Shown: positions 10,346 through 21,363, numbered from the stretch's first letter. The stretch is DNA of 40,087 nucleotides from Acidobacteriota bacterium (GCA_003222535.1 QHWJ01000209.1:1-40087); one strand, 5' to 3'. The notes: a model not told the origin generated them from the sequence alone. Numbers and translations are program-made.

Positions 10346-10372
10346 GAAGTGTCAGCCTCGCGAAACTATCGA

Positions 10373-11458
10373 ATGTGGAAACCCCTGCTCGCGTGTGCAG
10401 CCATCGCTTTGGCGTCGATTCCGCTGCACGCTCAGGCGCCGGCGGCCGGCCGGGCCGAAGCTGGTTGGCAGGCCCTTCAAGCTGGCGACGGTGACAGAGC
10501 CGCGGCGGTCTTTCGCGAAGCGCTCACCCGGGATCCACGCGACGCCACGCTGCACTTCGGCGCCGGCGTCGCCGCCCACCTGCTCGGCCTCGAAACGGAT
10601 GCCGTGCAGTCGCTCAGGCGCGCGGTGCAGCTCGAACCGAGATTGATCGCCGCCTCGGCTCTGCTGGGCGAGATCGAGCGCCACGAGGGTAACATCGACG
10701 CCGCCATTCGCACCTACGAACAGGCACTCGCGCGCGCACCCGGGAATCCGTCGTTGCGGGCGCGCCTGGATGAGTGGCGCCACGAGTCGGCGGTGCACGA
10801 TACGCTGGAGCAGTGGAGCGATCACCGGTTCTCGGTGGTGTTCGATGGACAAATAAACCGAACGCTCGGGAAGCGCGGGTTCGACGTGCTCGACGCCGCC
10901 TACTGGCGGATTGGCAGGGCCATCGGCGCCTACCCGTCGGACCGCATCGCCGTCACGCTCTACAGCGAACGGCAGTTCCGCGATATCACGCACGCGCCTG
11001 CCTGGTCGGGCGGCATCTTCGACGGCCGCATTCGCATTCCGGTCAAGGGCGCGGCGCAGGATCTGCCTCAGTTCGATCGTGTGCTCACGCACGAGCTGAC
11101 CCATGCGATGGTGAGCAGCCTGGCGAACCGGGGGGTGCCCGGCTGGCTCCACGAGGGCCTGGCCAGCTATTTCGAGCCACGTGATGCGGCGCTCGCGGGG
11201 CGCCGCCTCAAGGCCTTGGGCGTGGTGATTCCTTTGGCCAATCTGCAGGGTGGCTTCGGCGGTCTTGGCGCGGCAGAGGCGGCTGTCGCCTACGAAGAGA
11301 GCCTCGTCGCCGCCGATGTTCTGGTCCAGCGCCTCGGCACGCACACCGCAATCCTGCTCGAATACATGGGGAAAGGTCAGACATTCGAGGAGAGCCTCAG
11401 CCTCCTTGGAGTCGCTCGGGGTGAATTCGAAAGCGCTCTCATGCGTCGCTTCAGATAG
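10373..11458 (+). CDS. Secreted TPR protein with gluzincin peptidase domain (MA family)
   Basis: Probable zinc metallopeptidase exported to the periplasm. From ATG10373 (MWKPLLACAA) there is a signal peptide ending near HAQAPA. The frame is open a little upstream to GTG10349, but the ATG gives the normal signal length. Residues about 20-135 are TPR-like repeats (AGWQALQAGDGDRAAAVF, then FGAGVAAHLLG). The C-terminal domain carries HELTH at about residue 242, with WLHEGLASYFE about 25 residues later supplying the third ligand. This is the HExxH...E pattern of the peptidase MA / DUF1570-like group. Substrate unknown. The neighbours do not form an operon with it. Confidence 0.82.
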   Translation: MWKPLLACAAIALASIPLHAQAPAAGRAEAGWQALQAGDGDRAAAVFREALTRDPRDATLHFGAGVAAHLLGLETDAVQSLRRAVQLEPRLIAASALLGEIERHEGNIDAAIRTYEQALARAPGNPSLRARLDEWRHESAVHDTLEQWSDHRFSVVFDGQINRTLGKRGFDVLDAAYWRIGRAIGAYPSDRIAVTLYSERQFRDITHAPAWSGGIFDGRIRIPVKGAAQDLPQFDRVLTHELTHAMVSSLANRGVPGWLHEGLASYFEPRDAALAGRRLKALGVVIPLANLQGGFGGLGAAEAAVAYEESLVAADVLVQRLGTHTAILLEYMGKGQTFEESLSLLGVARGEFESALMRRFR

Positions 11459-11582: not shown

Positions 11583-12053
11583 TTGTCTCACCAAGACCGC
11601 TTGAACATCGCCGTTTTCATCGACTTCGACAACATCGAGATCGGCGTCAAAACCACGCTCGGCCAGCAGTTCGACGTCGGCATCATCCTCGACGCCATCA
11701 AGGAGCGCGGCGAGGTCGTCACCAAGATCGCCTACGCGGACTGGACGCGCGCCGGCGAGTACAGCCGGCATCTGACGCAGCACGCCATCCGGCTCGTGCA
11801 GCGCAACCTCACCCCCGGCGGCGACAAGAACGGCGCCGACATCAACCTGGCGCTTGATGCGCTCGAGATGGTGTTCACGCACCAGCACATCAACGCGTAC
11901 GTCATCGTCGGAGGCGACAGCGACTTCCTCTCGCTCGTCGAAAAACTCAAGCAGTACGACAAGAAAGTGTTTGTCGTCGGCGGCCGCGCCTTCACCAGCG
12001 TGATCCTGCAGCGGAACTGCCACGAATTCATCGCGTACGAGAACGCGCGCTGA
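11583..12053 (+). CDS. NYN (PIN-like) RNase domain protein, front half of a split NYN-LOTUS gene
   Basis: NYN/LabA-type PIN-like domain expected to bind metal and cleave RNA. Acidic residues lie in AVFIDFDNIE, GGDKNGADINLALDAL and VIVGGDSDF, the usual NYN active-site pattern. TTG11583 is preceded at 7 bases by AAGGA and is preferred over ATG11559, which sits in a word repeat. The frame ends after HEFIAYENAR. In related proteins a linker and then LOTUS/OST-HTH domains follow. Here those domains lie directly downstream in another frame (12050-12964), so the protein is truncated to the catalytic domain of 156 residues unless frameshifting restores it. Confidence 0.85.
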   Translation: MSHQDRLNIAVFIDFDNIEIGVKTTLGQQFDVGIILDAIKERGEVVTKIAYADWTRAGEYSRHLTQHAIRLVQRNLTPGGDKNGADINLALDALEMVFTHQHINAYVIVGGDSDFLSLVEKLKQYDKKVFVVGGRAFTSVILQRNCHEFIAYENAR

Positions 12054-12964
12054 AGATCCTCGCCGATCGCGAGGTCTCGCCGCAGACCGGCCTGCTCAAG
12101 AGCACGCTCCTGCAGCTCGACTCCACGTTCTCCGAGCGCAACTACGGCGCCTCGTCGTTCCTCGATTTCGTCGAGAAGCTGGCGCAATCCGGGTTCGTGC
12201 AGCTGAAGACGTCGGGCCGCAGCGTGATGGTGGAGCTCAACGCGGCCTTCTCCGACGAGAGTGCATCGGGGGCGCCGGCGCTGGCGGCCGAGCCGCCGGC
12301 GGCCGTATCCGCTCCGCGTTACAGCACCCCTCGCCGCAGTGAAGACGGAGGCGGGACCCTCCGGCCTCCGGCCGATGTCGCGCAGATGTTCAGGGCCGCG
12401 GAAGATCAGGCGGCACAGTACGGAGACGAGCCGGCGGCCCCGGTGGAAGGGCGCCCCACTGAAGCGCGCGCGACCGAGAGCGCCGAAGCCGGCGTTCTGC
12501 GCGCCGGCCGAATCCTCGGCGCCGCGACAACCGCGCGCTGGCCGATGTACCTACGCAACGTGAAACAGATCCTCCGCCAGGCCGACGGCGGCTTCGACGA
12601 GCGGCGCTACGGCTTCAGCGGGCTGATGGATCTCCTGAAAGCGTGCCAGCGTGACGGACTCTTGCGGATCGAGCGCGATCGCCGCGGCGGCCTTCGCGTG
12701 TTCCAGGGTGCTTCGTTGCAGCGAGCGGCGCCCCCCGCAGCCGGACCGGGCGAGGTGATCGAGCTGCCCGAGATGGAGTCGATCCCGATCGATACGACGG
12801 CGGAGCTGCTCGGCCGCGCCAAGCCGCGGAAACCCCGCGCGCGGGCACCGCGCCCGGCCCCCGCGACGACGCCGCGGAAGGCCGCCGCGAGGAAACCGGC
12901 AGCGCGGCGGACGCGGAACAAGAAGCCCGCAACGGTCCACGCGAACGACGACACCGAAAACTGA
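12050..12964 (+). pseudogene. LOTUS/OST-HTH half of the split NYN-LOTUS gene, frameshifted
   Basis: Reading frame two from 12050 gives LKILADREVSPQTGLLKST and then LDSTFSERNYGASSFLDFVEKL, a classic OST-HTH/LOTUS domain. It is fused out of frame to the NYN domain. A second LOTUS-like domain follows (MYLRNVKQILRQADGGFDER, then LLKACQRDGLLRI), about 12545-12720. The protein ends in a Lys/Arg/Pro/Ala tail with KPRKPRARAPRP, likely nucleic-acid binding. The first in-frame usual start is GTG12197, inside the first LOTUS domain, so separate translation would give a broken domain. The junction suggests loss of the linker plus a one-base shift. Confidence 0.75.
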
Positions 12965-13501
12965 GGAGCACATGATGACCGGGCGCACGCTGATCGGGCT
13001 CGTGCTTGTGTCGGTGTCTGGTCCGGCGCCGCTACATCGCGTGGTATTCGAAGTACCTGAAGCCGATCAGCAAGAGCTCCCCACAGTAACCTCCTCACAG
13101 TAACCACGAAAGACACGAAACCCGCGAAAGACACGAAACCGGTGAGAACACGAAAACCACGAAAGAAGAAACGCTGAACGCGGAGAACGCAGAGAACCCG
13201 CCAGCCCGATCATGGGATCCCAGGTCCGAACGCTGCGCGGCCGGACGCCCGAGCCGCTGGTACGATCCGCTCGCCTTCCACCCGGCGAGCTTCTCACAAG
13301 ACGGCCGGCAATCCCGCAACGACGCTCCCGGCCGCGGCAGCAGGGACGATCTGCTGCGACAGAACGGCGCGAAGAAATCAGCCAAGGTTAGGCGGCTCGT
13401 ACAACCTTCGGAAGACGACTTGGTCAGTCCTGTGAGCGTCCAAATGTAGATTCTTGGCTGTCGTGCTCGAATCACAGCGTTCCTCAGGAATGGTGGCGTC
13501 G
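12965..13501. other. Gene-poor stretch with repeats and gene debris
   Basis: No convincing gene. At 12974-13090, a short hydrophobic start (GRTLIGLVLVSV) and, in another frame, RRYIAWYSKYLKPISKSSPQ before a stop look like two ends of a small lost membrane protein. Word repeats occupy 13101-13200. GTTAGGC at 13387-13393 matches an integron R' core box and may mark the left edge of the cassette cluster, but no matching left arm is clear. Confidence 0.4.
13101..13200. repeat. CACGAAA word repeat
   Basis: Imperfect tandem ACCACGAAAGACACGAAACC words, followed by AACGCGGAGAACGCAGAGAAC words. The same two word families recur at 17301-17360 (reverse complement) and 27933-28285. Confidence 0.8.
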
Positions 13502-13972
13502 ATGAGATGCATCAAATTGTTAGGAGCGGTCACCGTTCTCGCCGCGCAAATGCTTTCCTTCACAGGCTGCGCCCATCGACGCGCTAGTGCTAGTGCCGCC
13601 CCAAACCGTAAGATCATTTCAACGTATTCTCTGTGGGATGGCATGGGACCGCCGAGCACGGATCGCCAGTTTGCGGCCTTGGGATGCCTGGGAACGCTGA
13701 CCATTTCGAATCTAGATGTGAGTTTTGAGCCCGGCAAGTCGCCCGGGTGCCTGTCACCGATTCATCAGCGGACGATGGGGACGCTCGGATACAGGGAGAT
13801 TCGCGAAATCCGCGTGACACGAAGACCTGAAGTGCTCATCTTCAGAACGGGAACTAATCCGCCAGCCCTGAGAGTGACCGACTGGGTAGGTGCAGAGGAA
13901 TTCCAACGAGTTGTCGCCGCCTTGAAGAAGGCCTATCAGGCCTGGAAGTCACAGCACCGGGATAGGAAATAG
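13502..13972 (+). CDS. Putative lipoprotein with PH-like fold
   Basis: A 156-residue protein from ATG13502 (ATG13490 is possible). The N-terminus MRCIKLLGAVTVLAAQMLSFTGC is a signal peptide with a lipobox-like end. The mature part has alternating strands (LTISNLDVSFEP, REIREIRVTRRP, EVLIFRTG) followed by a C-terminal helix (EEFQRVVAALKKAYQAW). That order resembles a bacterial PH/GRAM domain; this is a fold inference only. Base composition is visibly more A+T-rich than the core genes. It is probably the first cassette gene of the cluster that follows. Confidence 0.6.
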   Translation: MRCIKLLGAVTVLAAQMLSFTGCAHRRASASAAPNRKIISTYSLWDGMGPPSTDRQFAALGCLGTLTISNLDVSFEPGKSPGCLSPIHQRTMGTLGYREIREIRVTRRPEVLIFRTGTNPPALRVTDWVGAEEFQRVVAALKKAYQAWKSQHRDRK

Positions 13973-13987
13973 AGAATCAGCATTCTT

Positions 13988-14107
13988 GGATGACGACCGG
14001 CTCTGCTCGCGACCGTGTGATGCAGGATTCTGTCGCGGGCCTGGTCGTCGCGAGCGGAGTTGGGACGTGCGAATGGCGCAACTTCAGTGAGCCGCCTTGC
14101 GTTAGGC
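13988..14107 (+). repeat. attC-like site A (degenerate)
   Basis: The right end is CAGTGAGCC, a spacer and then GTTAGGC (14101-14107), a consensus R' box. The centre holds a hairpin (CTCTGCTCGCGACC against GGTCGTCGCGAGCGGAG). The left arm is poorly conserved (GGATGAC then GGCTCTGCTC), so only the right half is convincing. Confidence 0.4.
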
Positions 14108-14132
14108 GTACACTCGGAGGCATTCAGTTCTG

Positions 14133-14900
14133 GTGAACCCAATGGCATCGAACCCTGGCGTGGGGCACATCGTCGCGATGGGTGGTGGCGGTTTTTCGAT
14201 GGAGCCGGACAATCCCCTCTTGGACGATTTCGTGCTGTCGCTCTCGCGGCGGCATCCCGCCCGAGTCTGTTTCGTCCCGACCGCCAGTGCTGATTCAGCC
14301 ACCTACATCGTGACCTTCTATCGCGCTTTCAGCGGGAGGTGTTTTCCGACAGATTTGACGCTCTTCGATTCGCCGCTACTCACGCGACGTCCAGCACGAA
14401 GCTCAGAGCTGGCGACATTCGTGGCCGAACAGGATGTCATCTACGTCGGTGGTGGGAGCCCCGCAAACCTGCTTGCCTTGTGGCGGGTCCACGGGTTGGA
14501 CGTCGTGCTTCGGGAGGCTTGGTCAAACGGGATCGTGTTGAGCGGTGTCAGCGCAGGAATGGTCTGTTGGTTCAGCGGCGGGCTCACCGACTCATACGGC
14601 GGACTGGAACGATTGAGCGACGGACTCGCGTTGATAGAGGCGACCGCCTGCCCGCACTATAGCGGGAATGAAGAGCGGCGGCGAACCTATCATCGGGCAG
14701 TCGCTGAGGGGCTCGGATCGGGCTACGCTGCTGACGACGGCGCTGCTCTTCACTTCGCTGGGTCGGCGCTCGTTGAGGTGGTCAGCTCTCGACCCGACGC
14801 GGGCGCATATCGAATCGAGCGTGTAGAAGGACGCGTCGTCGAAACCCGATTACCGGTTCGCTTCTTGGGCGCAGCGGATTCGACGCCCAGGGACGCCTGA
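14133..14900 (+). CDS. Peptidase E-like protein (family S51 type)
   Basis: A class I glutamine-amidotransferase-like hydrolase resembling peptidase E, which cleaves Asp-X dipeptides in the cytoplasm. No signal peptide. MGGGGFSM is the usual N-terminal strand-loop; DVIYVGGGSPANLLALW is the conserved second block. The nucleophile elbow SGVSAGM places the catalytic serine at residue 140, followed by CWFSGGLTDSYG. CPHYSGNEERR and GYAADDGAALHF complete the family pattern. GGAGG ends 12 bases before GTG14133 and 21 before ATG14142; I use GTG. The gene starts 26 bases after the R' box of site A, and its stop lies inside site B, as in integron cassettes. Confidence 0.85.
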   Translation: MNPMASNPGVGHIVAMGGGGFSMEPDNPLLDDFVLSLSRRHPARVCFVPTASADSATYIVTFYRAFSGRCFPTDLTLFDSPLLTRRPARSSELATFVAEQDVIYVGGGSPANLLALWRVHGLDVVLREAWSNGIVLSGVSAGMVCWFSGGLTDSYGGLERLSDGLALIEATACPHYSGNEERRRTYHRAVAEGLGSGYAADDGAALHFAGSALVEVVSSRPDAGAYRIERVEGRVVETRLPVRFLGAADSTPRDA

Positions 14901-14967
14901 CACGCGTTGCACCAGTCGGCCGCGTGCGACCACGAGCGGCTGCTGGTGAACGCTTTCCGTGGTAGCC
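14895..14967 (+). repeat. attC-like site B
   Basis: R'' is GCCTGAC (14895-14901) and contains the TGA stop of the peptidase E-like gene. The left arm GCGTTGCACCAG (14904-14915) pairs with CTGGTGAACGC (14943-14953), leaving one unpaired G at 14909. The R' candidate GGTAGCC is degenerate. Confidence 0.6.
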
Positions 14968-14981
14968 GGCGACATCACGCG

Positions 14982-15010
14982 GCCCAACCCCGCGTTGCAC
15001 CCGGCGGCCG
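14982..15010 (+). repeat. attC-like half-site B2
   Basis: GCCCAAC (14982-14988) followed by GCGTTGCACCCGG matches the left half of an attC site. A GCGGCCGC pair lies just downstream (at about 15004-15036). No good right arm is found; CGGGTTAGCG near 15070 may be a decayed one. Confidence 0.45.
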
Positions 15011-15145
15011 CTGGTGCGATCGTGCGCGGCCGCTTAGACAAGCCCCATGCGCGACAACCAGCGGGTTAGCGTCAGAACGACTTCCGCGATTGGAAGTACC
15101 AGCAGCTTTGAACTCGTATCATCAGGAAACCGCTGTTCTGCAAGA

Positions 15146-15586
15146 ATGACCGCCGATGACCGGAACCTTCAGCTTGCGCGGATTTTCGCCATCGCCTCAT
15201 GTCTGTGCGCAAGTGTCTGCGTTGGCTGCGGCGGTCATCCCACTGAGCCGAGCCAGCTCACGCTCGGCCAGGCCTTCGAGCTGCGCCCCGGGACCTCGGC
15301 GATTCTGCGGGACGGACTGAACGTCAGGTTCGAAGGTGTGAGGTCTGATTCGCGGTGTCCGATGGACGCGCTTTGCGTCTGGGCGGGTGACGCCATCATT
15401 ACGGTGTGGTTGTCGCGACCGGCCGGCAGACAGGTCGGGCGCGAGTTGCATACCGATCCCAGCGGCTCGGAAGCATCGTATCTGGGATACGTGATCAAGC
15501 TGGTGGCGCTCGCGCCGTATCCGCGATCGGATCGGCAGATACGGCCGGATGATTACGTGGCGATTCTCACTGTCGACGCGAGGTGA
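15146..15586 (+). CDS. Small secreted lipoprotein of unknown function
   Basis: A 146-residue protein from ATG15146 with an N-terminal hydrophobic segment ending CVGCGG, a probable lipobox with a short Pro/Ser linker. The mature part is beta-rich. It contains LGQAFELRPGTSAILRDGL, then a conserved-looking block with two cysteines (SRCPMDALCVWAGDA), then VIKLVALAPYPRSDRQIRP and YVAILTV. The look is of a single compact beta-sandwich with one likely disulfide. I recall similar small proteins in Acidobacteriota but assign no function. It lies between attC-like half-sites and reads as a cassette gene. Confidence 0.7.
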   Translation: MTADDRNLQLARIFAIASCLCASVCVGCGGHPTEPSQLTLGQAFELRPGTSAILRDGLNVRFEGVRSDSRCPMDALCVWAGDAIITVWLSRPAGRQVGRELHTDPSGSEASYLGYVIKLVALAPYPRSDRQIRPDDYVAILTVDAR

Positions 15587-15610
15587 GATGAGGTCTCGCG
15601 CGTAAGCCGT

Positions 15611-15631
15611 GTGACAACACGTTGCACCAGG
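15611..15631 (+). repeat. attC-like half-site C
   Basis: GTGACAAC followed by ACGTTGCACCAG repeats the left arm of site B almost exactly (GTTGCACCAG identical). No right arm follows. Instead the sequence runs into a RelE fragment, so the site appears cut by a deletion. Confidence 0.45.
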
Positions 15632-15649
15632 AGACTTCGGGGTCTGAGC

Positions 15650-15784
15650 CAGCCTCAGTACCGCCTGCGACTGGACGACATCAGGGTGTTTGATGACGTT
15701 ACAGAAACGCAAGTCCAAGTCCTCGCCGTCGTCACGAAAGCCGACGCCCAAGCATGGCTCAACGAGCAACGGACGAACCCGGAC
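15650..15784 (+). pseudogene. RelE/ParE-type toxin C-terminal fragment
   Basis: The frame reads PQYRLRLDDIRVFDDV, then VQVLAVVTKADAQAWL. This is the last two strands and helix of a RelE-fold toxin. The N-terminal half is missing, its place being taken by half-site C, and the frame then runs on without the normal stop. It is most likely dead. Confidence 0.6.
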
Positions 15785-15882
15785 AAAAGATCACGGCCGA
15801 CGAGATGCGCGCTCTGCGGCTCAAGCCTCACACGTTTGATGGAGACTGGAACTACACGATCGAGCCACGCAAGGCGACTTGA
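15754..15882 (+). CDS. Small ORF between the RelE and PhyH fragments
   Basis: A 42-residue frame (MAQRATDEPGQKI start) with an LKPHTF block and WNYTIEPR near the end. It overlaps the RelE fragment and its stop overlaps the next start as TGATG (15880-15884), which would allow coupling. It may be an antitoxin remnant or a transposase end; WNYTI-like ends occur in some ISAzo13-type transposases. I do not recognise it firmly. Confidence 0.3.
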   Translation: MAQRATDEPGQKITADEMRALRLKPHTFDGDWNYTIEPRKAT

Positions 15883-16106
15883 TGTCTTATACGGGCGGGT
15901 TGCTCACCCACGACGAGATTCAGCGGCTGGCCGCCGTCGTCACGCCCGTCGCGTGTATGGCTTCGGCAGGCGGGGTTGTCGCGATGCGGCCGTTAGTAGT
16001 CCACGCCTCGTCGAAAGCGAGCGACAACCAGCCACGCCGCGTCCTGCACATCGAGTACGCGACTTCCGTTCACCTTGGCGCGGGCCTCGAGCTGGCCGTA
16101 GGCTGA
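15882..16106 (+). pseudogene. Phytanoyl-CoA dioxygenase (PhyH)-like C-terminal fragment
   Basis: A 74-residue frame. AGGVVAMRPLVVHASSKASDN and PRRVLHIEYA match the end of the PhyH Fe(II)/2-oxoglutarate dioxygenase fold. The histidine in VHASS would be the distal iron ligand, and the arginine in PRRVLH would bind 2-oxoglutarate. The HxD pair and most of the barrel are missing, so it cannot be an active enzyme. The TGA stop lies inside the R'' box of attC-like site D. Confidence 0.6.
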
Positions 16107-16173
16107 CAAGCTTTGCAGCCGACGGCGGCTGGCGCGAGAATGAGCCGGCGCGGCTGAAATCTTGCTGTTAGGC
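16101..16173 (+). repeat. attC-like site D (best complete site)
   Basis: R'' GGCTGAC (16101-16107) contains the upstream stop codon. The left arm TTTGCAGCCG (16112-16121) pairs with CGGCTGAAA (16151-16159), with one unpaired G at 16115. After a 7-base spacer comes a perfect R' box, GTTAGGC (16167-16173). At 73 bases, the size and layout are those of an integron attC site. Confidence 0.7.
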
Positions 16174-16195
16174 CGACGAAGGCGATGACAAGCGA

Positions 16196-16510
16196 CTACG
16201 GCAAACGGCTTTTCCAGTACCCGGGTTTGCGGCGGTCATGCGCAAGAGCGAGAACTCGGATTGCGGCGGATTCTTCGAGGTAGACCACGTGATAAGGGAA
16301 GCGCTTTACCGGGATTCGTCTCACCGGTAAGGAGGTGGGTAACCTGGGCACCTTTGCGCCTGCGCGCGGCAGGTCGACGATCTGACGAACGGCGGCGTCG
16401 ACGGCATCGAAAAATTCAAGGGCGAGGCCGGTTCGACGGCCTTCATACCAACGCGCGGCGGCTCGGTACTCGGCGTCAGCCTCGTCCTCAAAGCGAACGC
16501 GCGAGGTCAC
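16196..16510 (-). CDS. ParE/RelE-superfamily toxin
   Basis: Toxin of a type II toxin-antitoxin pair; ParE toxins poison gyrase and RelE toxins cleave mRNA, and the sequence does not decide between them. At 104 residues it has the compact RelE fold: N-terminal helices (EADAEYRAAARWYEGR, then ALEFFDAVDAAVRQI), then strands PVRRIPVKRFPYHVVYLEE and IRVLALAHDRRKPGYW. The helical N-terminus and the RRIPVKRFPY strand resemble the plasmid-stabilisation ParE group. It overlaps the antitoxin gene by four bases (ATGA), with the antitoxin first. It stands reversed to the other cassette genes, between attC-like sites D and E. Confidence 0.85.
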   Translation of the reverse strand: MTSRVRFEDEADAEYRAAARWYEGRRTGLALEFFDAVDAAVRQIVDLPRAGAKVPRLPTSLPVRRIPVKRFPYHVVYLEESAAIRVLALAHDRRKPGYWKSRLP

Positions 16511-16752
16511 CGTTTGCGCAGTTCAGCTTCGGCGCGGCTCCGCACGTCTTCCCACGAAATGCCTGCCGACTCTCCGGTCATGACCCGGCGGGCGCGTCTC
16601 TCGATTTCCGCGGCCCAGGCCGCTTCAACTTCGGCGATGTCTTCCGTCCCGGCATCGTCAAGACTGGCGAGGAGTTCGGCGGCCACATCAGCTCGTTCGT
16701 CAATCGGCAATGTCAGGGCTTCACGAAGAAGTTCTTGGGCTCGAGACGTCAT
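16507..16752 (-). CDS. Antitoxin, addiction-module component family
   Basis: An 81-residue, acidic helical protein (LPIDERADVAAELLASLDD, then VEAAWAAEIERRARRV, and ISWEDVRSRAEAELRKR). This is the pattern of the putative addiction module component family that pairs with ParE/RelE toxins (TIGR02574-like). It neutralises the toxin, and such antitoxins often repress their own operon. It is the first gene of the pair; its promoter must lie in 16753-16800, next to attC-like site E. Confidence 0.85.
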   Translation of the reverse strand: MTSRAQELLREALTLPIDERADVAAELLASLDDAGTEDIAEVEAAWAAEIERRARRVMTGESAGISWEDVRSRAEAELRKR

Positions 16753-16778
16753 ATGGCCATTCTAGACCCCGCCACGTA

Positions 16779-16848
16779 GCCCAACAAGCGGCTGCACCCG
16801 ACGGCTTCCTGGTTCTGTGCAGCCGCGGGTGAGCCACGGACGCTGGAC
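16779..16848 (+). repeat. attC-like site E
   Basis: R'' GCCCAAC (16779-16785) is consensus. The left arm GGCTGCACCCG (16790-16800) pairs with CGGGTGAGCC (16826-16835), with one unpaired G at 16794. The R' candidate GCTGGAC (16842-16848) matches the complement of R'' at five of seven bases. Confidence 0.6.
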
Positions 16849-16991
16849 TAAATAGCGAGAATCCGGCATCGAGCGGTTCGAGCCGCGAGCATCCGAATAC
16901 GCCAGCGGGCTCGTCGTATCGTTCCGAGGCTCGAGCAGATTCCCGCTGACCGCACGCTGCAGTTTGGAGTCGCCGGAAGGTTCAGTGGCAC

Positions 16992-17300: not shown

Positions 17301-17360
17301 TTCGTGGGTTTCGTGTCTTTCGTGGGTTTCGTGTCTTTCGTGGGTTTCGTGTCTTTCGTG
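17301..17360. repeat. 18-bp tandem repeat TTCGTGGGTTTCGTGTCT, three copies
   Basis: Exact or near-exact 18-base units ending 3 bases before the stop codon of the minus-strand VWFA-TPR gene. It is the reverse complement of the CACGAAA word family seen at 13101-13200 and 27933-28285. Confidence 0.85.
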
Positions 17361-17362
17361 GT

Positions 17363-20197
17363 TCAACGCTTTTCCTTCTCGAGATAATCCACCCACTGCT
17401 TCACCAGCGCGAGCTGCGGGCCCCGCGCGCGCGCGTAGGCGTCGGCGTATTCCTTCGCGCGCTTCAGGTCCTCGGCCCGCGTGTGGACCATCGCGCCGCC
17501 TGCGTGCACGGTGTAGAGCCACTGCACCGCGAAGTAGTACGCGTCCCGGTCGTCCTGCCGCCCCTCGAGGTACCGCTCGAGCGTACGCACCGCTTCCCGG
17601 CCTTTCCCGAACGTCCCGTACAGCATCGCGAGCGGCTTGGTGAAGCGGACGTCGGCCGGCCATTTGGCGATCGCTTCTTCGTAAATCGCGCGCGCCTCGC
17701 CGAAGTCGTGGTTTCGGAGCAGCGCGTCGCCGAGCCATTGATAGATCTGCGGAAAATCGGTGCCCTCGACGAGCGCCGTCTGCCACGCGCTCGCGGCCTC
17801 GCGATCGTGGCCGGACGCGGCAAAGCACGCGGCCAGGAACGCGAGCGGCGCCGTGCTGTCGAGATCCGGATCGATGGCGCGCTTGAAGCTGGCTTCAGCC
17901 TTGGAATAGTCGCCGGCCGCCAGAAAGGCGAGACCCTGATCGAACGACGCGCGCGCGCTCGGCGCCAGCCGCTCGAGAAACGGCGACACCGTGGCGTCCT
18001 GGACCACCAGATCGCGGTGAAAGGACGGCGCCATCGTCGTGTCGTCGACCGGCAGGAACAGTTCGGCGTCCACCGAGGTGTCGCCCAGGCCGTCGGCGGA
18101 CGTCAACAGGACCTTGGGCGCCGCGATCTCGAAGCCCCGCGACAGCGTCTTGATCGACTTGCCGCCGGCGGAGAGGATCGCCCTCAGAATGTATTTGCCG
18201 GGCGGCAGCGCGTGCGTCGGCATCACCCGCGTGAAAATCACGCGCGCGTCGCCGACCGCGTGCGGCGGCACGTCGGCGTTGAACAGGGCGGGCGCGTCCG
18301 GGCCCGTCGCGATCTCGTATTCCATCGTCACGCCGTCGGTCTTCGCGCCGTATGCCTCGACGTAGCCGTGCACGCTCCCGAACGTGATCTGATAGCCGAT
18401 CGTCGGCGTCAGCAGCTGGCCGACCTCGAGCGGTCCGCCTACCATCAATTCGCTCAGCGTGATGCCGGCGGACTCCGGCAGCGTGGCGTGCATGGTGTGT
18501 TCGACCGTGCCCACGCGCTCCCCCTCGACGGCGGCGAGCTTCAGGGTGTACTCGCCCGGGGCGAGGCTCGCGCCCGACGTGTACTGCAGCGCCGACGGCA
18601 CGCCGGTCATGGTCGGCAGCAGCCGCATGTCCGCCGATTTGCTGTCCACCATGCGGCCGTTGTGATCGGTGATGATGTAGCCGACCGACACGACTTTCGA
18701 CGCCGGGTAATCGGTGCCGACGTCGGCGTGGATCAGGAGCTGCACCTTGTCGGGTTCGGGGCCCTGGAGCGCGAACGACGCGACGCGCAGCGGCAGCGCC
18801 GAAGCCAGGAGCGGCGAGGCGAGCGCGGCCGCGACCGCCTGACGCGGCGATCGCAGGGCCCGCGCCGCGCGCTGATCCGCCGGCGTGCCGAGGAGCTGCC
18901 GCCGCGATCGCACGATCGCGCCGCGGCGCGGCACCTCGATCCGCACCGGGTGCGATTTGCCGTCCTTGTCCCGGGCGTCGGATTCGACGCCGAGCAGGTA
19001 GTAGCCGGAGAGCTCCGATTCGATGCGCTCGAACAAGGTCTGCCCGGTGCCGGTGACGGTGAACAGCGTCCCGCGCGCGGCGCCCGCCAGCAGCTCGAGG
19101 CCCTCCGACCGCGCCTGGCGATCCGCGAACGGGTTGATCGGTATGCGCGCATCGGTGATGTCGAACAGCTGGTTGTCCAGCTTCAAGGCGTAGAGGCTGG
19201 TGCGCGCCTCCGCCGCCATGGTGCCGAGATCGATGATCATCGCCTCATCGGACAGGATGAAGCCTTCGGAGATGAGGATCAGCGTCTTCGGCGCATCGAT
19301 CCGGCGGAGGCCGGCAAACAGATCGCGGAGTGTCTGGATGGTCTGGTCGGCCTCGAGGGTGACATCCTGCGCGAGCGAGTGCGCCTCGATCTCGACCTGC
19401 CCGCGGCACATTTCCTGCGCGCCCGGCGACATCGCGATCCCCTGGCACTCCCGGGCCTGCACCCCTTCGAGCGTCGTGCGATCTCCCTTGTCGATCGCCT
19501 GCGCTTCGACCAGCGCGATGTTGTGACCGAGGTCCACCGATCGGCTGGCCTGCTTCTGGCCGACCATGCGGCTGATGGCCTGCTTGATGCGAGCGCGGTC
19601 CGCCGTGAACGTCGTCGCGGGAGCCCCAATGCCGAAGCCGGCCACCGCCACGCGGTCCGAGGGCGCCAGGCGATCGATGAACGCGTTGGCCGCTCTGGCA
19701 ATCGCCAGTGCGCCGCCGAACCGGATGTTCGGCTGGTCGATGGCCATGACGATCAGGCGGCCGCCGGTGGCACTCTCGTTGGTGCTGTACCCGTCAGGCG
19801 GCAACGCCACCGTGGCGCCGGCTGGCTCCGCCGCGAGCGGGATCCATTCGGCCGTCACGACGCGCCGCGTGTTGCCGTCGACGCGGACGACAAAGTCGGC
19901 GGGCGTCAGGTTGGCGACCGGCTTGCCGCGATCGTCGACGACCGTGACGTCGAGCGAGGTGACTTCGACCGACGTCTGAAAGCTCGGCTTCGGCGGAGGC
20001 TGCTGCGCGTGCACGGTCCGGCCGAAGCCGAACGCCACGTACATCGCAGCTAGCGCGACGACGATCGAACGCAAAGCCCGCAGAGACCGCAAATCGATCC
20101 TTTTTCTCGCAGTTCTACGCGCCTGGCCCACGTGCCCCTCCCGCCCATCTTGCCCTTCCTGCCGCACCCGCCGGTCCAGCCTGTCCCGCCCGCGCAT
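17363..20197 (-). CDS. Secreted VWFA-related protein with C-terminal TPR repeats
   Basis: A 944-residue exported protein of the VWFA-related Acidobacterial type. I start it at ATG20197, which overlaps the upstream stop as TGATG; a longer frame to 20278 would run 82 bases into the previous gene. After an Arg-rich leader comes a hydrophobic signal (IVVALAAMYVAFGF) cut near VHAQ. The domain start SVEVTSLDVTVVDDRGKPVANLTPADFVV is characteristic of this group. The VWFA-like domain has AIDQPNIRFGG where MIDAS would read DxSxS, so metal binding is probably lost. A long beta-rich middle is followed by TPR units from about residue 720 (FDQGLAFLAAGDYSKAEASF). It is the last gene of a three-gene operon. 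Confidence 0.82.
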   Translation of the reverse strand: MRGRDRLDRRVRQEGQDGREGHVGQARRTARKRIDLRSLRALRSIVVALAAMYVAFGFGRTVHAQQPPPKPSFQTSVEVTSLDVTVVDDRGKPVANLTPADFVVRVDGNTRRVVTAEWIPLAAEPAGATVALPPDGYSTNESATGGRLIVMAIDQPNIRFGGALAIARAANAFIDRLAPSDRVAVAGFGIGAPATTFTADRARIKQAISRMVGQKQASRSVDLGHNIALVEAQAIDKGDRTTLEGVQARECQGIAMSPGAQEMCRGQVEIEAHSLAQDVTLEADQTIQTLRDLFAGLRRIDAPKTLILISEGFILSDEAMIIDLGTMAAEARTSLYALKLDNQLFDITDARIPINPFADRQARSEGLELLAGAARGTLFTVTGTGQTLFERIESELSGYYLLGVESDARDKDGKSHPVRIEVPRRGAIVRSRRQLLGTPADQRAARALRSPRQAVAAALASPLLASALPLRVASFALQGPEPDKVQLLIHADVGTDYPASKVVSVGYIITDHNGRMVDSKSADMRLLPTMTGVPSALQYTSGASLAPGEYTLKLAAVEGERVGTVEHTMHATLPESAGITLSELMVGGPLEVGQLLTPTIGYQITFGSVHGYVEAYGAKTDGVTMEYEIATGPDAPALFNADVPPHAVGDARVIFTRVMPTHALPPGKYILRAILSAGGKSIKTLSRGFEIAAPKVLLTSADGLGDTSVDAELFLPVDDTTMAPSFHRDLVVQDATVSPFLERLAPSARASFDQGLAFLAAGDYSKAEASFKRAIDPDLDSTAPLAFLAACFAASGHDREAASAWQTALVEGTDFPQIYQWLGDALLRNHDFGEARAIYEEAIAKWPADVRFTKPLAMLYGTFGKGREAVRTLERYLEGRQDDRDAYYFAVQWLYTVHAGGAMVHTRAEDLKRAKEYADAYARARGPQLALVKQWVDYLEKEKR

Positions 20198-21363
20198 CAC
20201 TTCCCGGCCAGGGCGCGGTAGCCCTGCCGCGCACGAACGTCGTGGTGGCCGTCGACGTCGACCTTGATCTTCCTCCACGCGTCGTCGCGGCGCGTGTTGC
20301 TCGACTGGTATCCGAGCAGATACTGGTTCGACAGCTCGTCGAGCAGATCGGCGAAGGCGACCTGCAGATCCTCGGCGCTGTCGGTGAACAGCGCGCGGCC
20401 GCCGGTCGGCGTCGACAACCGCTCCATGATCCTCTTCAGCGGCTCCATCGTCACGCCCCGGCCCTGGCCGATCATGTAGAGCGTGATGTCGCTCGCCTGC
20501 AGCCGCCGCTCGACATCCTTGATCGTCGCATGGCTGCCCTGATCCTCGCCGTCGGTGAACACGACCAGCGCCTTGCGTCCCGTCTGGCGGCCCAGGATCT
20601 CGACGCCGCGCAAGAGCACGTCATACAGCGCCGTCGAGCCCCACGGGGCGAGGCGGTCCACGGCCTTGGTGCGCTCCGCCGGATCAGTGGTCTTCCGCGT
20701 CAACGTGAAGATGTTGTCGTTGAAGCCGAGCAGCGTCACCTGATCCTGCGGCGGAACTTCGCCGAGAAACTGCTTCACTGCACCCTTCACTCTGGGCATC
20801 GCCGACGCCATGCTGCCGGAGATGTCCACGGCCGCCACGAGCTCGAGCGGGACATCCTCGGACGCGAAATGCGTGATCGCCTGCGGATGTCCGTCTTCCG
20901 AGACGTGAAACGACGACTGCGGGACGTCTCGCACGAACCGGCCGCGGCCGTCGGTCACCGTCACGGTGACCTGCACGACGTCGACGTCGATCCGCTCGGC
21001 GTACCCGACCGTTCTGGTCCGGACCGTCTGGACCACGCGGGCGCCGCCCTGAAGCGTGGCGACCGCGCGCACCTGATGCTCGGCGATCACCGGGCCGGCG
21101 TCCCAGTCGCATTCGAAGGGCAGGCGCGTCAGCGCACAGGCCTGGCGGCCGTCGACGAAGAACGTCAACGCCACCACCGCCTCGGGCGGATCGACGCCAG
21201 CCCGCAGCACCGTCGGCCCGACGAGGTAGGCGTCGTCGCCGGGCGCGATGATCGTCAGCTGCGGGCCGTCGGAAGGCGCCTGCGCCCACATCGTCAGCGT
21301 GAGGCCGACCAGGGCCGTGATGACTATTGACGCGCGCGGGCGCTCGATGATCTCGATGATCAT
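20197..21363 (-). CDS. Secreted VWFA-domain protein with intact MIDAS
   Basis: A 388-residue exported protein. ATG21363 follows the upstream stop by one base and gives a clean signal peptide (SIVITALVGLTLTMWAQA). Residues about 30-130 form an Ig-like beta domain (LTIIAPGDDAYLVGPTVLRA, FFVDGRQ). Then comes DVVQVTVTVTDGRGRFV, the entry to the VWFA-related Acidobacterial domain, and a VWFA fold with complete MIDAS (DISGSMAS), FNDNIFTL, GSTALYDVLL and VVFTDGED. The domain ends in YLLGYQSSN, as in this family. It probably binds a protein partner through Mg2+ at the cell envelope. It is the middle gene of the operon, coupled to both neighbours. Confidence 0.88.
   Translation of the reverse strand: MIIEIIERPRASIVITALVGLTLTMWAQAPSDGPQLTIIAPGDDAYLVGPTVLRAGVDPPEAVVALTFFVDGRQACALTRLPFECDWDAGPVIAEHQVRAVATLQGGARVVQTVRTRTVGYAERIDVDVVQVTVTVTDGRGRFVRDVPQSSFHVSEDGHPQAITHFASEDVPLELVAAVDISGSMASAMPRVKGAVKQFLGEVPPQDQVTLLGFNDNIFTLTRKTTDPAERTKAVDRLAPWGSTALYDVLLRGVEILGRQTGRKALVVFTDGEDQGSHATIKDVERRLQASDITLYMIGQGRGVTMEPLKRIMERLSTPTGGRALFTDSAEDLQVAFADLLDELSNQYLLGYQSSNTRRDDAWRKIKVDVDGHHDVRARQGYRALAGK

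What the first reader, a model, noticed from the sequence alone, without database searches (positions are those of the whole stretch)
13973..16848. Integron-type gene-cassette cluster without integrase in an acidobacterial-like chromosome
Accessory genes are separated by sites with the attC layout: RYYYAAC-like box, left arm, variable centre, right arm, GTTRRRY-like box. Three sites (14895, 16101, 16779) pair perfectly except for one unpaired G in the left arm. Integron attC sites are recognised as folded single strands with this kind of extrahelical base. No integrase is visible here, so the cluster is either a CALIN or the far end of a larger integron.
Basis: partly seen in the sequence, partly recalled or inferred. 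Interest (0 to 1): 0.78.

Follow-up and report, generated by a model that had tools for sequence, protein, structure and literature searches.

The report
Decayed integron cassette cluster lacking integrase
A 4.4-kb patch of this bacterial chromosome is a real but decaying set of mobile gene cassettes with integron attC sites and no working integrase nearby; this is a known kind of element that turns out to be very common in this group of bacteria.

Summary
A covariance model trained only on relatives' attC sites finds the three named sites (16099-16175, 14893-14969, 16778-16850; 62.9, 51.0 and 46.4 bits) and a partial one at 15003-15033; the next hit in the window scores 10 bits. Run on class 1 integrons, the same model hits only cassette junctions (14 of 14). 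The sites lie in a 4.4-kb insert between two genes that are adjacent or nearly so in six relatives, none of which has an attC there. The cluster is therefore an isolated CALIN, not the far end of a larger integron. It is decaying: only 16099-16175 keeps an intact GTTAGGC box. The genome (95.5% complete) has no intact intI, only one on another contig with an internal deletion, beside two attC sites and a cassette. About 20 attC sites lie on 13 contigs. Across the order, 99 of 146 genomes carry such sites. This is a new member of a known kind. Side observation: the second extrahelical base is bottom-strand C in all 67 aligned sites, where most studied attC sites have G.

The parts
13387..13393 (+). 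GTTAGGC box with no hairpin: probable left boundary of the first cassette (attI- or attG-like junction)
   Evidence: One of three GTTAGGC in the window, all + strand and all in the insert; not similar to the candidate attI regions after relatives' intI genes. Inference.
13502..13972 (+). cassette 1 gene, small lipoprotein-like protein, no Pfam family
   Evidence: ORF; no Pfam match
14085..14107 (+). degenerate attC, right half only (L'-like CAGTGAGC and R' box GTTAGGC 14101-14107)
   Evidence: sequence; GTTAGGC; no R1 hit
14133..14900 (+). cassette 2 gene, peptidase family S51 (255 aa, intact)
   Evidence: PF03575 E 2.8e-40; the 80 closest homologues listed in genome contigs include no record titled Acidobacteria
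14893..14969 (+). attC site A (R'' GCCTGAC, stem fully paired, R' box interrupted: GTGGTAGCC)
   Evidence: R1 51.0 bits, E 1e-9
14982..15039 (+). attC site B, remnant: R'' GCCCAAC and left arm present, right arm deleted, R' reduced to CTTAGAC
   Evidence: R1 partial 15003-15033, 21.5 bits; sequence
15125..15586 (+). cassette 3 gene, unknown (ORF may start at 15047)
   Evidence: ORF; no Pfam match
15611..15630 (+). attC site C, left half only (GTGACAACACGTTGCACCAG)
   Evidence: sequence
15640..16098 (.). gene debris between half-sites; stretches look by eye like a RelE/ParE toxin end and a transposase end, but Pfam finds nothing
   Evidence: translation; Pfam negative
16099..16175 (+). attC site D, best preserved (R'' GGCTGAC 16101-16107, R' GTTAGGC 16167-16173)
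   Evidence: R1 62.9 bits, E 1.8e-12; folds as a single strand
16196..16510 (-). cassette gene, ParE-type toxin
   Evidence: PF05016 E 5e-8
16507..16752 (-). cassette gene, antitoxin of the addiction-module type
   Evidence: PF09720 E 1.7e-15
16778..16850 (+). attC site E (R'' GCCCAAC 16779-16785 intact, R' mutated to GCTGGAC)
   Evidence: R1 46.4 bits, E 1.2e-8
13030..13086 (+). remnant of an S9 peptidase 3' end, core DNA left of the insert
   Evidence: tblastn, 70% identity over 20 residues to the gene at this place in G009
11858..12964 (+). left flanking core gene (OST-HTH)
   Evidence: PF12872; conserved in the same place in seven relatives
17363..20278 (-). right flanking core gene with TPR repeats
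   Evidence: Pfam; conserved in the same place in the same seven relatives

Best explanation
It is a decayed CALIN: three recognisable attC sites, three remnants and about four cassettes, inserted between two core genes. Each attC would fold on its bottom strand into the hairpin that integron integrases recognise by two extrahelical bases, and recombination at the GTT of the R' box would have brought the cassettes in. The integrase acted in trans, from an intact integron in this lineage or in an earlier host. The copy now in this genome has lost its central 180 or so residues, so the cassettes are stranded and their sites are eroding. Shown: attC structure, insertion relative to relatives, the broken integrase, and linkage of such sites to intact intI in relatives. 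Inferred: that an integrase rather than ordinary recombination placed this group here, that it acted in trans, and that nothing moves the cassettes now.
For: A model trained without window sites finds the three sites. It finds only cassette junctions in 82 kb of class 1 integron DNA (14 of 14 hits). The stem covaries: 67 sites, 97% of cells paired against 70% in shuffles, 257 two-sided changes against 88 (the alignment was fitted to the model). Sites sit beside intact intI: in complete genome G144 all 12 sites lie within 13 kb of the only full intI; in G007 both strong sites follow intI. Empty locus in six relatives, no attC there. Cassette-type genes: S51 peptidase and a ParE toxin-antitoxin pair here; GNAT, BrnT, PIN, HTH and glyoxalase genes next to other attC sites of this genome. 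In the genome's only clear intI-like gene, TIGR02249 positions 65-243 are missing.
Against: No attI was identified and no junction could be fixed to the base, because no genome of the same genus is held. The genome is 95.5% complete in 450 contigs, so an intact intI could be missing from the assembly. The 18-bp repeats on both sides leave room for a rearrangement.
Confidence: 0.88

Rival explanations
1. The cluster is what remains of a complete integron that once stood at this spot and lost its own intI and attI, rather than cassettes inserted in trans.
For: CALINs have been proposed to be degraded integrons (PMC9024848). Complete genome G141 shows a broken intI with attC sites beside it.
Against: No intI fragment anywhere on the contig; the intI relic of this genome is on another contig with its own attC sites; the locus is empty in six relatives.
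Confidence: 0.25
2. The cassettes were carried here as a block by ordinary recombination between dispersed 18-bp tandem repeats that bracket the insert in inverted orientation.
For: Copies of the repeat at 13105-13137 (-) and 17301-17361 (+); similar repeats on both sides of the attC sites on contig C148 (L181).
Against: The genome-wide frequency of the repeat was not measured, so bracketing may be chance; it does not explain how the cassettes were first assembled.
Confidence: 0.12
3. Far end of a larger integron cut by the contig end.
For: Draft assembly; CALIN counts are inflated in drafts (PMC9024848).
Against: The insert is in mid-contig and bounded by syntenic core genes on both sides; no further attC on the contig.
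Confidence: 0.02
4. Dispersed hairpin repeats or terminators that only look like attC.
For: Many sites are single and scattered over 13 contigs.
Against: R1 hits known class 1 attC sites and nothing else there; sites cluster beside intact intI; conserved extrahelical bases and boxes.
Confidence: 0.02

Closest known systems
CALIN (cluster of attC sites lacking an integron integrase; IntegronFinder)
   Same: At least two attC sites close together with short genes between them and no intI nearby
   Different: Small and strongly decayed; the sites belong to a lineage-typical family with bottom-strand C as the second extrahelical base
Chromosomal integrons of the same order (e.g. G144, G021, G009, G007)
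   Same: attC sites recognised by the same model, similar cassette genes
   Different: Those have an intact intI (437-455 bits with TIGR02249) just upstream of the array and in the same orientation; here none
Class 1 mobile integron attC sites (aadA, VIM-2, qac)
   Same: R''-L''-loop-L'-R' layout, extrahelical bases on one arm, found by the same model
   Different: Most have bottom-strand G as the second extrahelical base; VIM-2 and cmlA1 share the C
Published Acidobacteria attC covariance model (Ghaly et al. 2021, PMC8352920)
   Same: Shows that chromosomal attC sites of that phylum were already known and form a taxon-specific family
   Different: Not available here, so not run on the window

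Membership tests
attC site | R''/L''/L'/R' layout with paired stem and variable centre | tested here: met
   R1 hits 62.9, 51.0, 46.4 bits; covariation; positive control on class 1 integrons 14 of 14
attC site | two extrahelical bases on one arm, six nucleotides apart | tested here: met
   alignment rows of the three window sites
attC site | intact GTTRRRY crossover box | tested here: inconclusive
   met in site D (16167-16173); degraded in A and E
attC site | bottom strand recombined by an IntI | not testable with these tools
   needs a recombination assay
CALIN | two or more clustered attC sites | tested here: met
   three within 2 kb; threshold of two from PMC9024848
CALIN | no integron integrase nearby | tested here: met
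   no TIGR02249 match on the contig
CALIN | call by IntegronFinder itself | not tested
   program and its model not available
complete integron | functional intI | tested here: not met
   none in the window; the genome has one intI with an internal deletion of 179 profile positions
complete integron | attI | tested here: inconclusive
   GTTAGGC at 13387 is unlike candidate attI regions of relatives

The most novel reading that the evidence does not exclude
Throughout this bacterial order the second extrahelical base of attC is bottom-strand C instead of the G of most studied sites: 67 of 67 aligned sites and 24 of 24 in a scan that did not specify the base (the sites come from two of the order's families). 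In two thirds of the sites the first base is T, giving the T-N6-C type that three of four tested integrases excise better than T-N6-G and for which a 2011 study knew only one natural example, blaVIM-2 (PMC3053210). If general, a whole lineage of chromosomal integrons runs on a recognition base that laboratory work treats as an exception.
Probability: 0.5. Interest if true: 0.5.

Novelty: new member of a known kind. Interest (0 to 1): 0.34.

Why it matters
It shows by comparison with relatives that a short intergenic place gained a cassette block, in a genome whose own integrase is dead, and that integrons and stranded cassettes are common in this order (99 of 146 genomes). It makes a concrete question testable: whether the C at the second extrahelical position, uniform in the sites looked at, goes with higher cassette mobility or with its own kind of integrase.

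Tried and rejected
Rfam has no match in the window; this is uninformative, since R1 later found attC sites there. A first strict pattern missed all own-genome sites and was loosened on the family. TIGR02249 hits on C85, C42 and C40 are below the cut-off, as are those in control genomes without integrons; I read them as Xer-type recombinases, not intI. The S51 peptidase was used to look for the same cassette elsewhere: of 35 homologue loci scanned, none has an attC. Comparison of the left junction with relatives' attI gave no likeness. The idea that blaVIM-2 came from this lineage because its attC scores 42.5 bits with R1 was weakened by aadA and qac sites at 33 bits, by cmlA1 sharing the same extrahelical base and by VIM-1 scoring 18; Ghaly et al. 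list no VIM cassette among those assigned to a taxon. A link between dead intI and scattered sites was dropped: G021 has an intact intI and scattered sites too.

Full report
Setting. The window is one whole contig (C220, 40,087 bp) of an 8.06-Mb draft genome of 450 contigs, 95.5% complete. It carries gyrA, gyrB-type and other core genes. The genomes compared are unnamed, so the acidobacterial label was not tested.

Are the sites real? A pattern search in 27 genomes of the same family gave 15 attC-like sites with none in the reversed control. Thirteen of them, excluding the window's own, were aligned, shown to covary (96.8% of cells paired, 78.5% in shuffles), and made into covariance model R1. 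The only other hits in the window are a partial one at 15003-15033 (21.5) and noise at 10 bits or less. As a positive control, R1 was run on 82 kb around class 1 integrons: all 14 hits, down to 12.6 bits, lie at cassette junctions (annotations). As a negative control, 146 kb of syntenic DNA of relatives gives at most 16.8 bits.

Anatomy. Reading the + strand: GTTAGGC at 13387; a small lipoprotein-like gene; a right half-site ending in GTTAGGC at 14101; an S51 peptidase gene (14133-14900); site A; remnant B; an unknown gene (15125-15586); left half-site C; gene debris; site D with an intact GTTAGGC at 16167; a ParE toxin-antitoxin pair on the opposite strand (16196-16752); site E. The three GTTAGGC of the window are all in this stretch and on this strand, with 1.54 expected in the whole window on both strands. 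Sites A and E have lost the crossover triplet or its spacing, so the array is decaying.

The place. In seven relatives (G009, G021, G023, G006, G022, G026, G014) the left gene (OST-HTH) and the right gene (TPR) lie in the same order. In five the matched stretches are about 140-405 bp apart; G023 has about 1 kb between them, and G009 an S9 peptidase. The window has 4.4 kb there. None of these loci has an attC. The window keeps a 20-residue remnant of the S9 gene at 13030-13086 (short match, supported by its position). The cluster is thus an isolated insert in mid-contig, and the 'far end of a larger integron' reading falls.

The integrase. No TIGR02249 match lies on the contig. The genome's best match is on C146, where one frame holds profile positions 1-64 and then 244-315. 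Alignment with intact IntI proteins shows an internal deletion between 'SAST' and 'AVANAAR'. Against the solved Vibrio IntI4 (2a3v) the missing part covers the residues that PMC3053210 lists as contacting the extrahelical bases (W157, K209, Y210, W219, H240, H241), so this copy should be dead. A GNAT gene and two attC sites follow it in the same orientation.

The rest of the genome and order. R1 finds 18 sites at E<0.001 on 13 contigs of this genome and a few more in the fetched stretches, often next to toxin-antitoxin, PIN, BrnT or acetyltransferase genes. In the family 20 of 27 genomes have sites and 12 of 27 have an intI above the curated cut-off. In the order 99 of 146 genomes have sites. 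Complete genome G144 has one intact intI and all 12 sites within 13 kb of it; G141 of the same genus has a broken intI, four sites beside it and six elsewhere. Two intI types occur: one in the same orientation as the array (G144, G007, G021, G009), and one with an N-terminal extension and the classical opposite orientation (G023). Inverted integrases are known from soil and freshwater bacteria (PMC8352920).

Extrahelical base. In 67 R1-aligned sites the second extrahelical base is G on the top strand, hence C on the recombined strand. R1 was seeded with a pattern holding that G, so a second scan left the base free: 24 of 24 are G. The same scan on class 1 integrons gives C for seven cassettes and G for VIM-2 and cmlA1. 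Bouvier et al. call the bottom-strand G conserved, with a G-to-C change costing little (PMC2727003). Larouche and Roy found C to favour excision by three of four integrases and knew only blaVIM-2 as a natural case (PMC3053210). This is the one point a specialist may not expect; whether other phyla share it was not tested.

Verdict. A real, decaying CALIN, ordinary for this order. Confidence is high for what it is and moderate for how it arrived (integrase in trans, against a relic of a local integron).

Noticed in passing
A3 alignment; L170-L190, L271-L272; window sites: Second extrahelical base of attC is bottom-strand C in 67 of 67 aligned sites and 24 of 24 in a base-free scan, where most studied sites have G.
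   Followed up: partly
L277:4813-4887 (plasmid CP066118.1, blaVIM-2 cassette): The attC of blaVIM-2 is the best-scoring mobile attC with the model of this order (42.5 bits; others 33.6 or less), but the gap is too small to claim an origin.
   Followed up: partly
L009:13539-13943 (contig C146): Integron integrase gene with an internal in-frame deletion of about 179 codons, followed by a GNAT cassette and two attC sites.
   Followed up: yes
window 13105-13137 (-) and 17301-17361 (+); L181:8557 and 14690: An 18-bp tandem repeat (TTCGTGGGTTTCGTGTCT) brackets the cassette insert in inverted orientation, and similar copies bracket the attC sites on C148; genome-wide frequency not measured.
   Followed up: partly
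window 13030-13086: Remnant of an S9 peptidase gene that is intact at this place in relative G009.
   Followed up: yes
L173 (G023:C19), L061 (G008:C76): A second type of integron integrase with an N-terminal extension of about 130 residues; in G023 it stands opposite to its array.
   Followed up: no
window 10349-11458: TPR-like gene between gyrA and the NYN gene, absent from this place in relatives; another accessory insertion.
   Followed up: no
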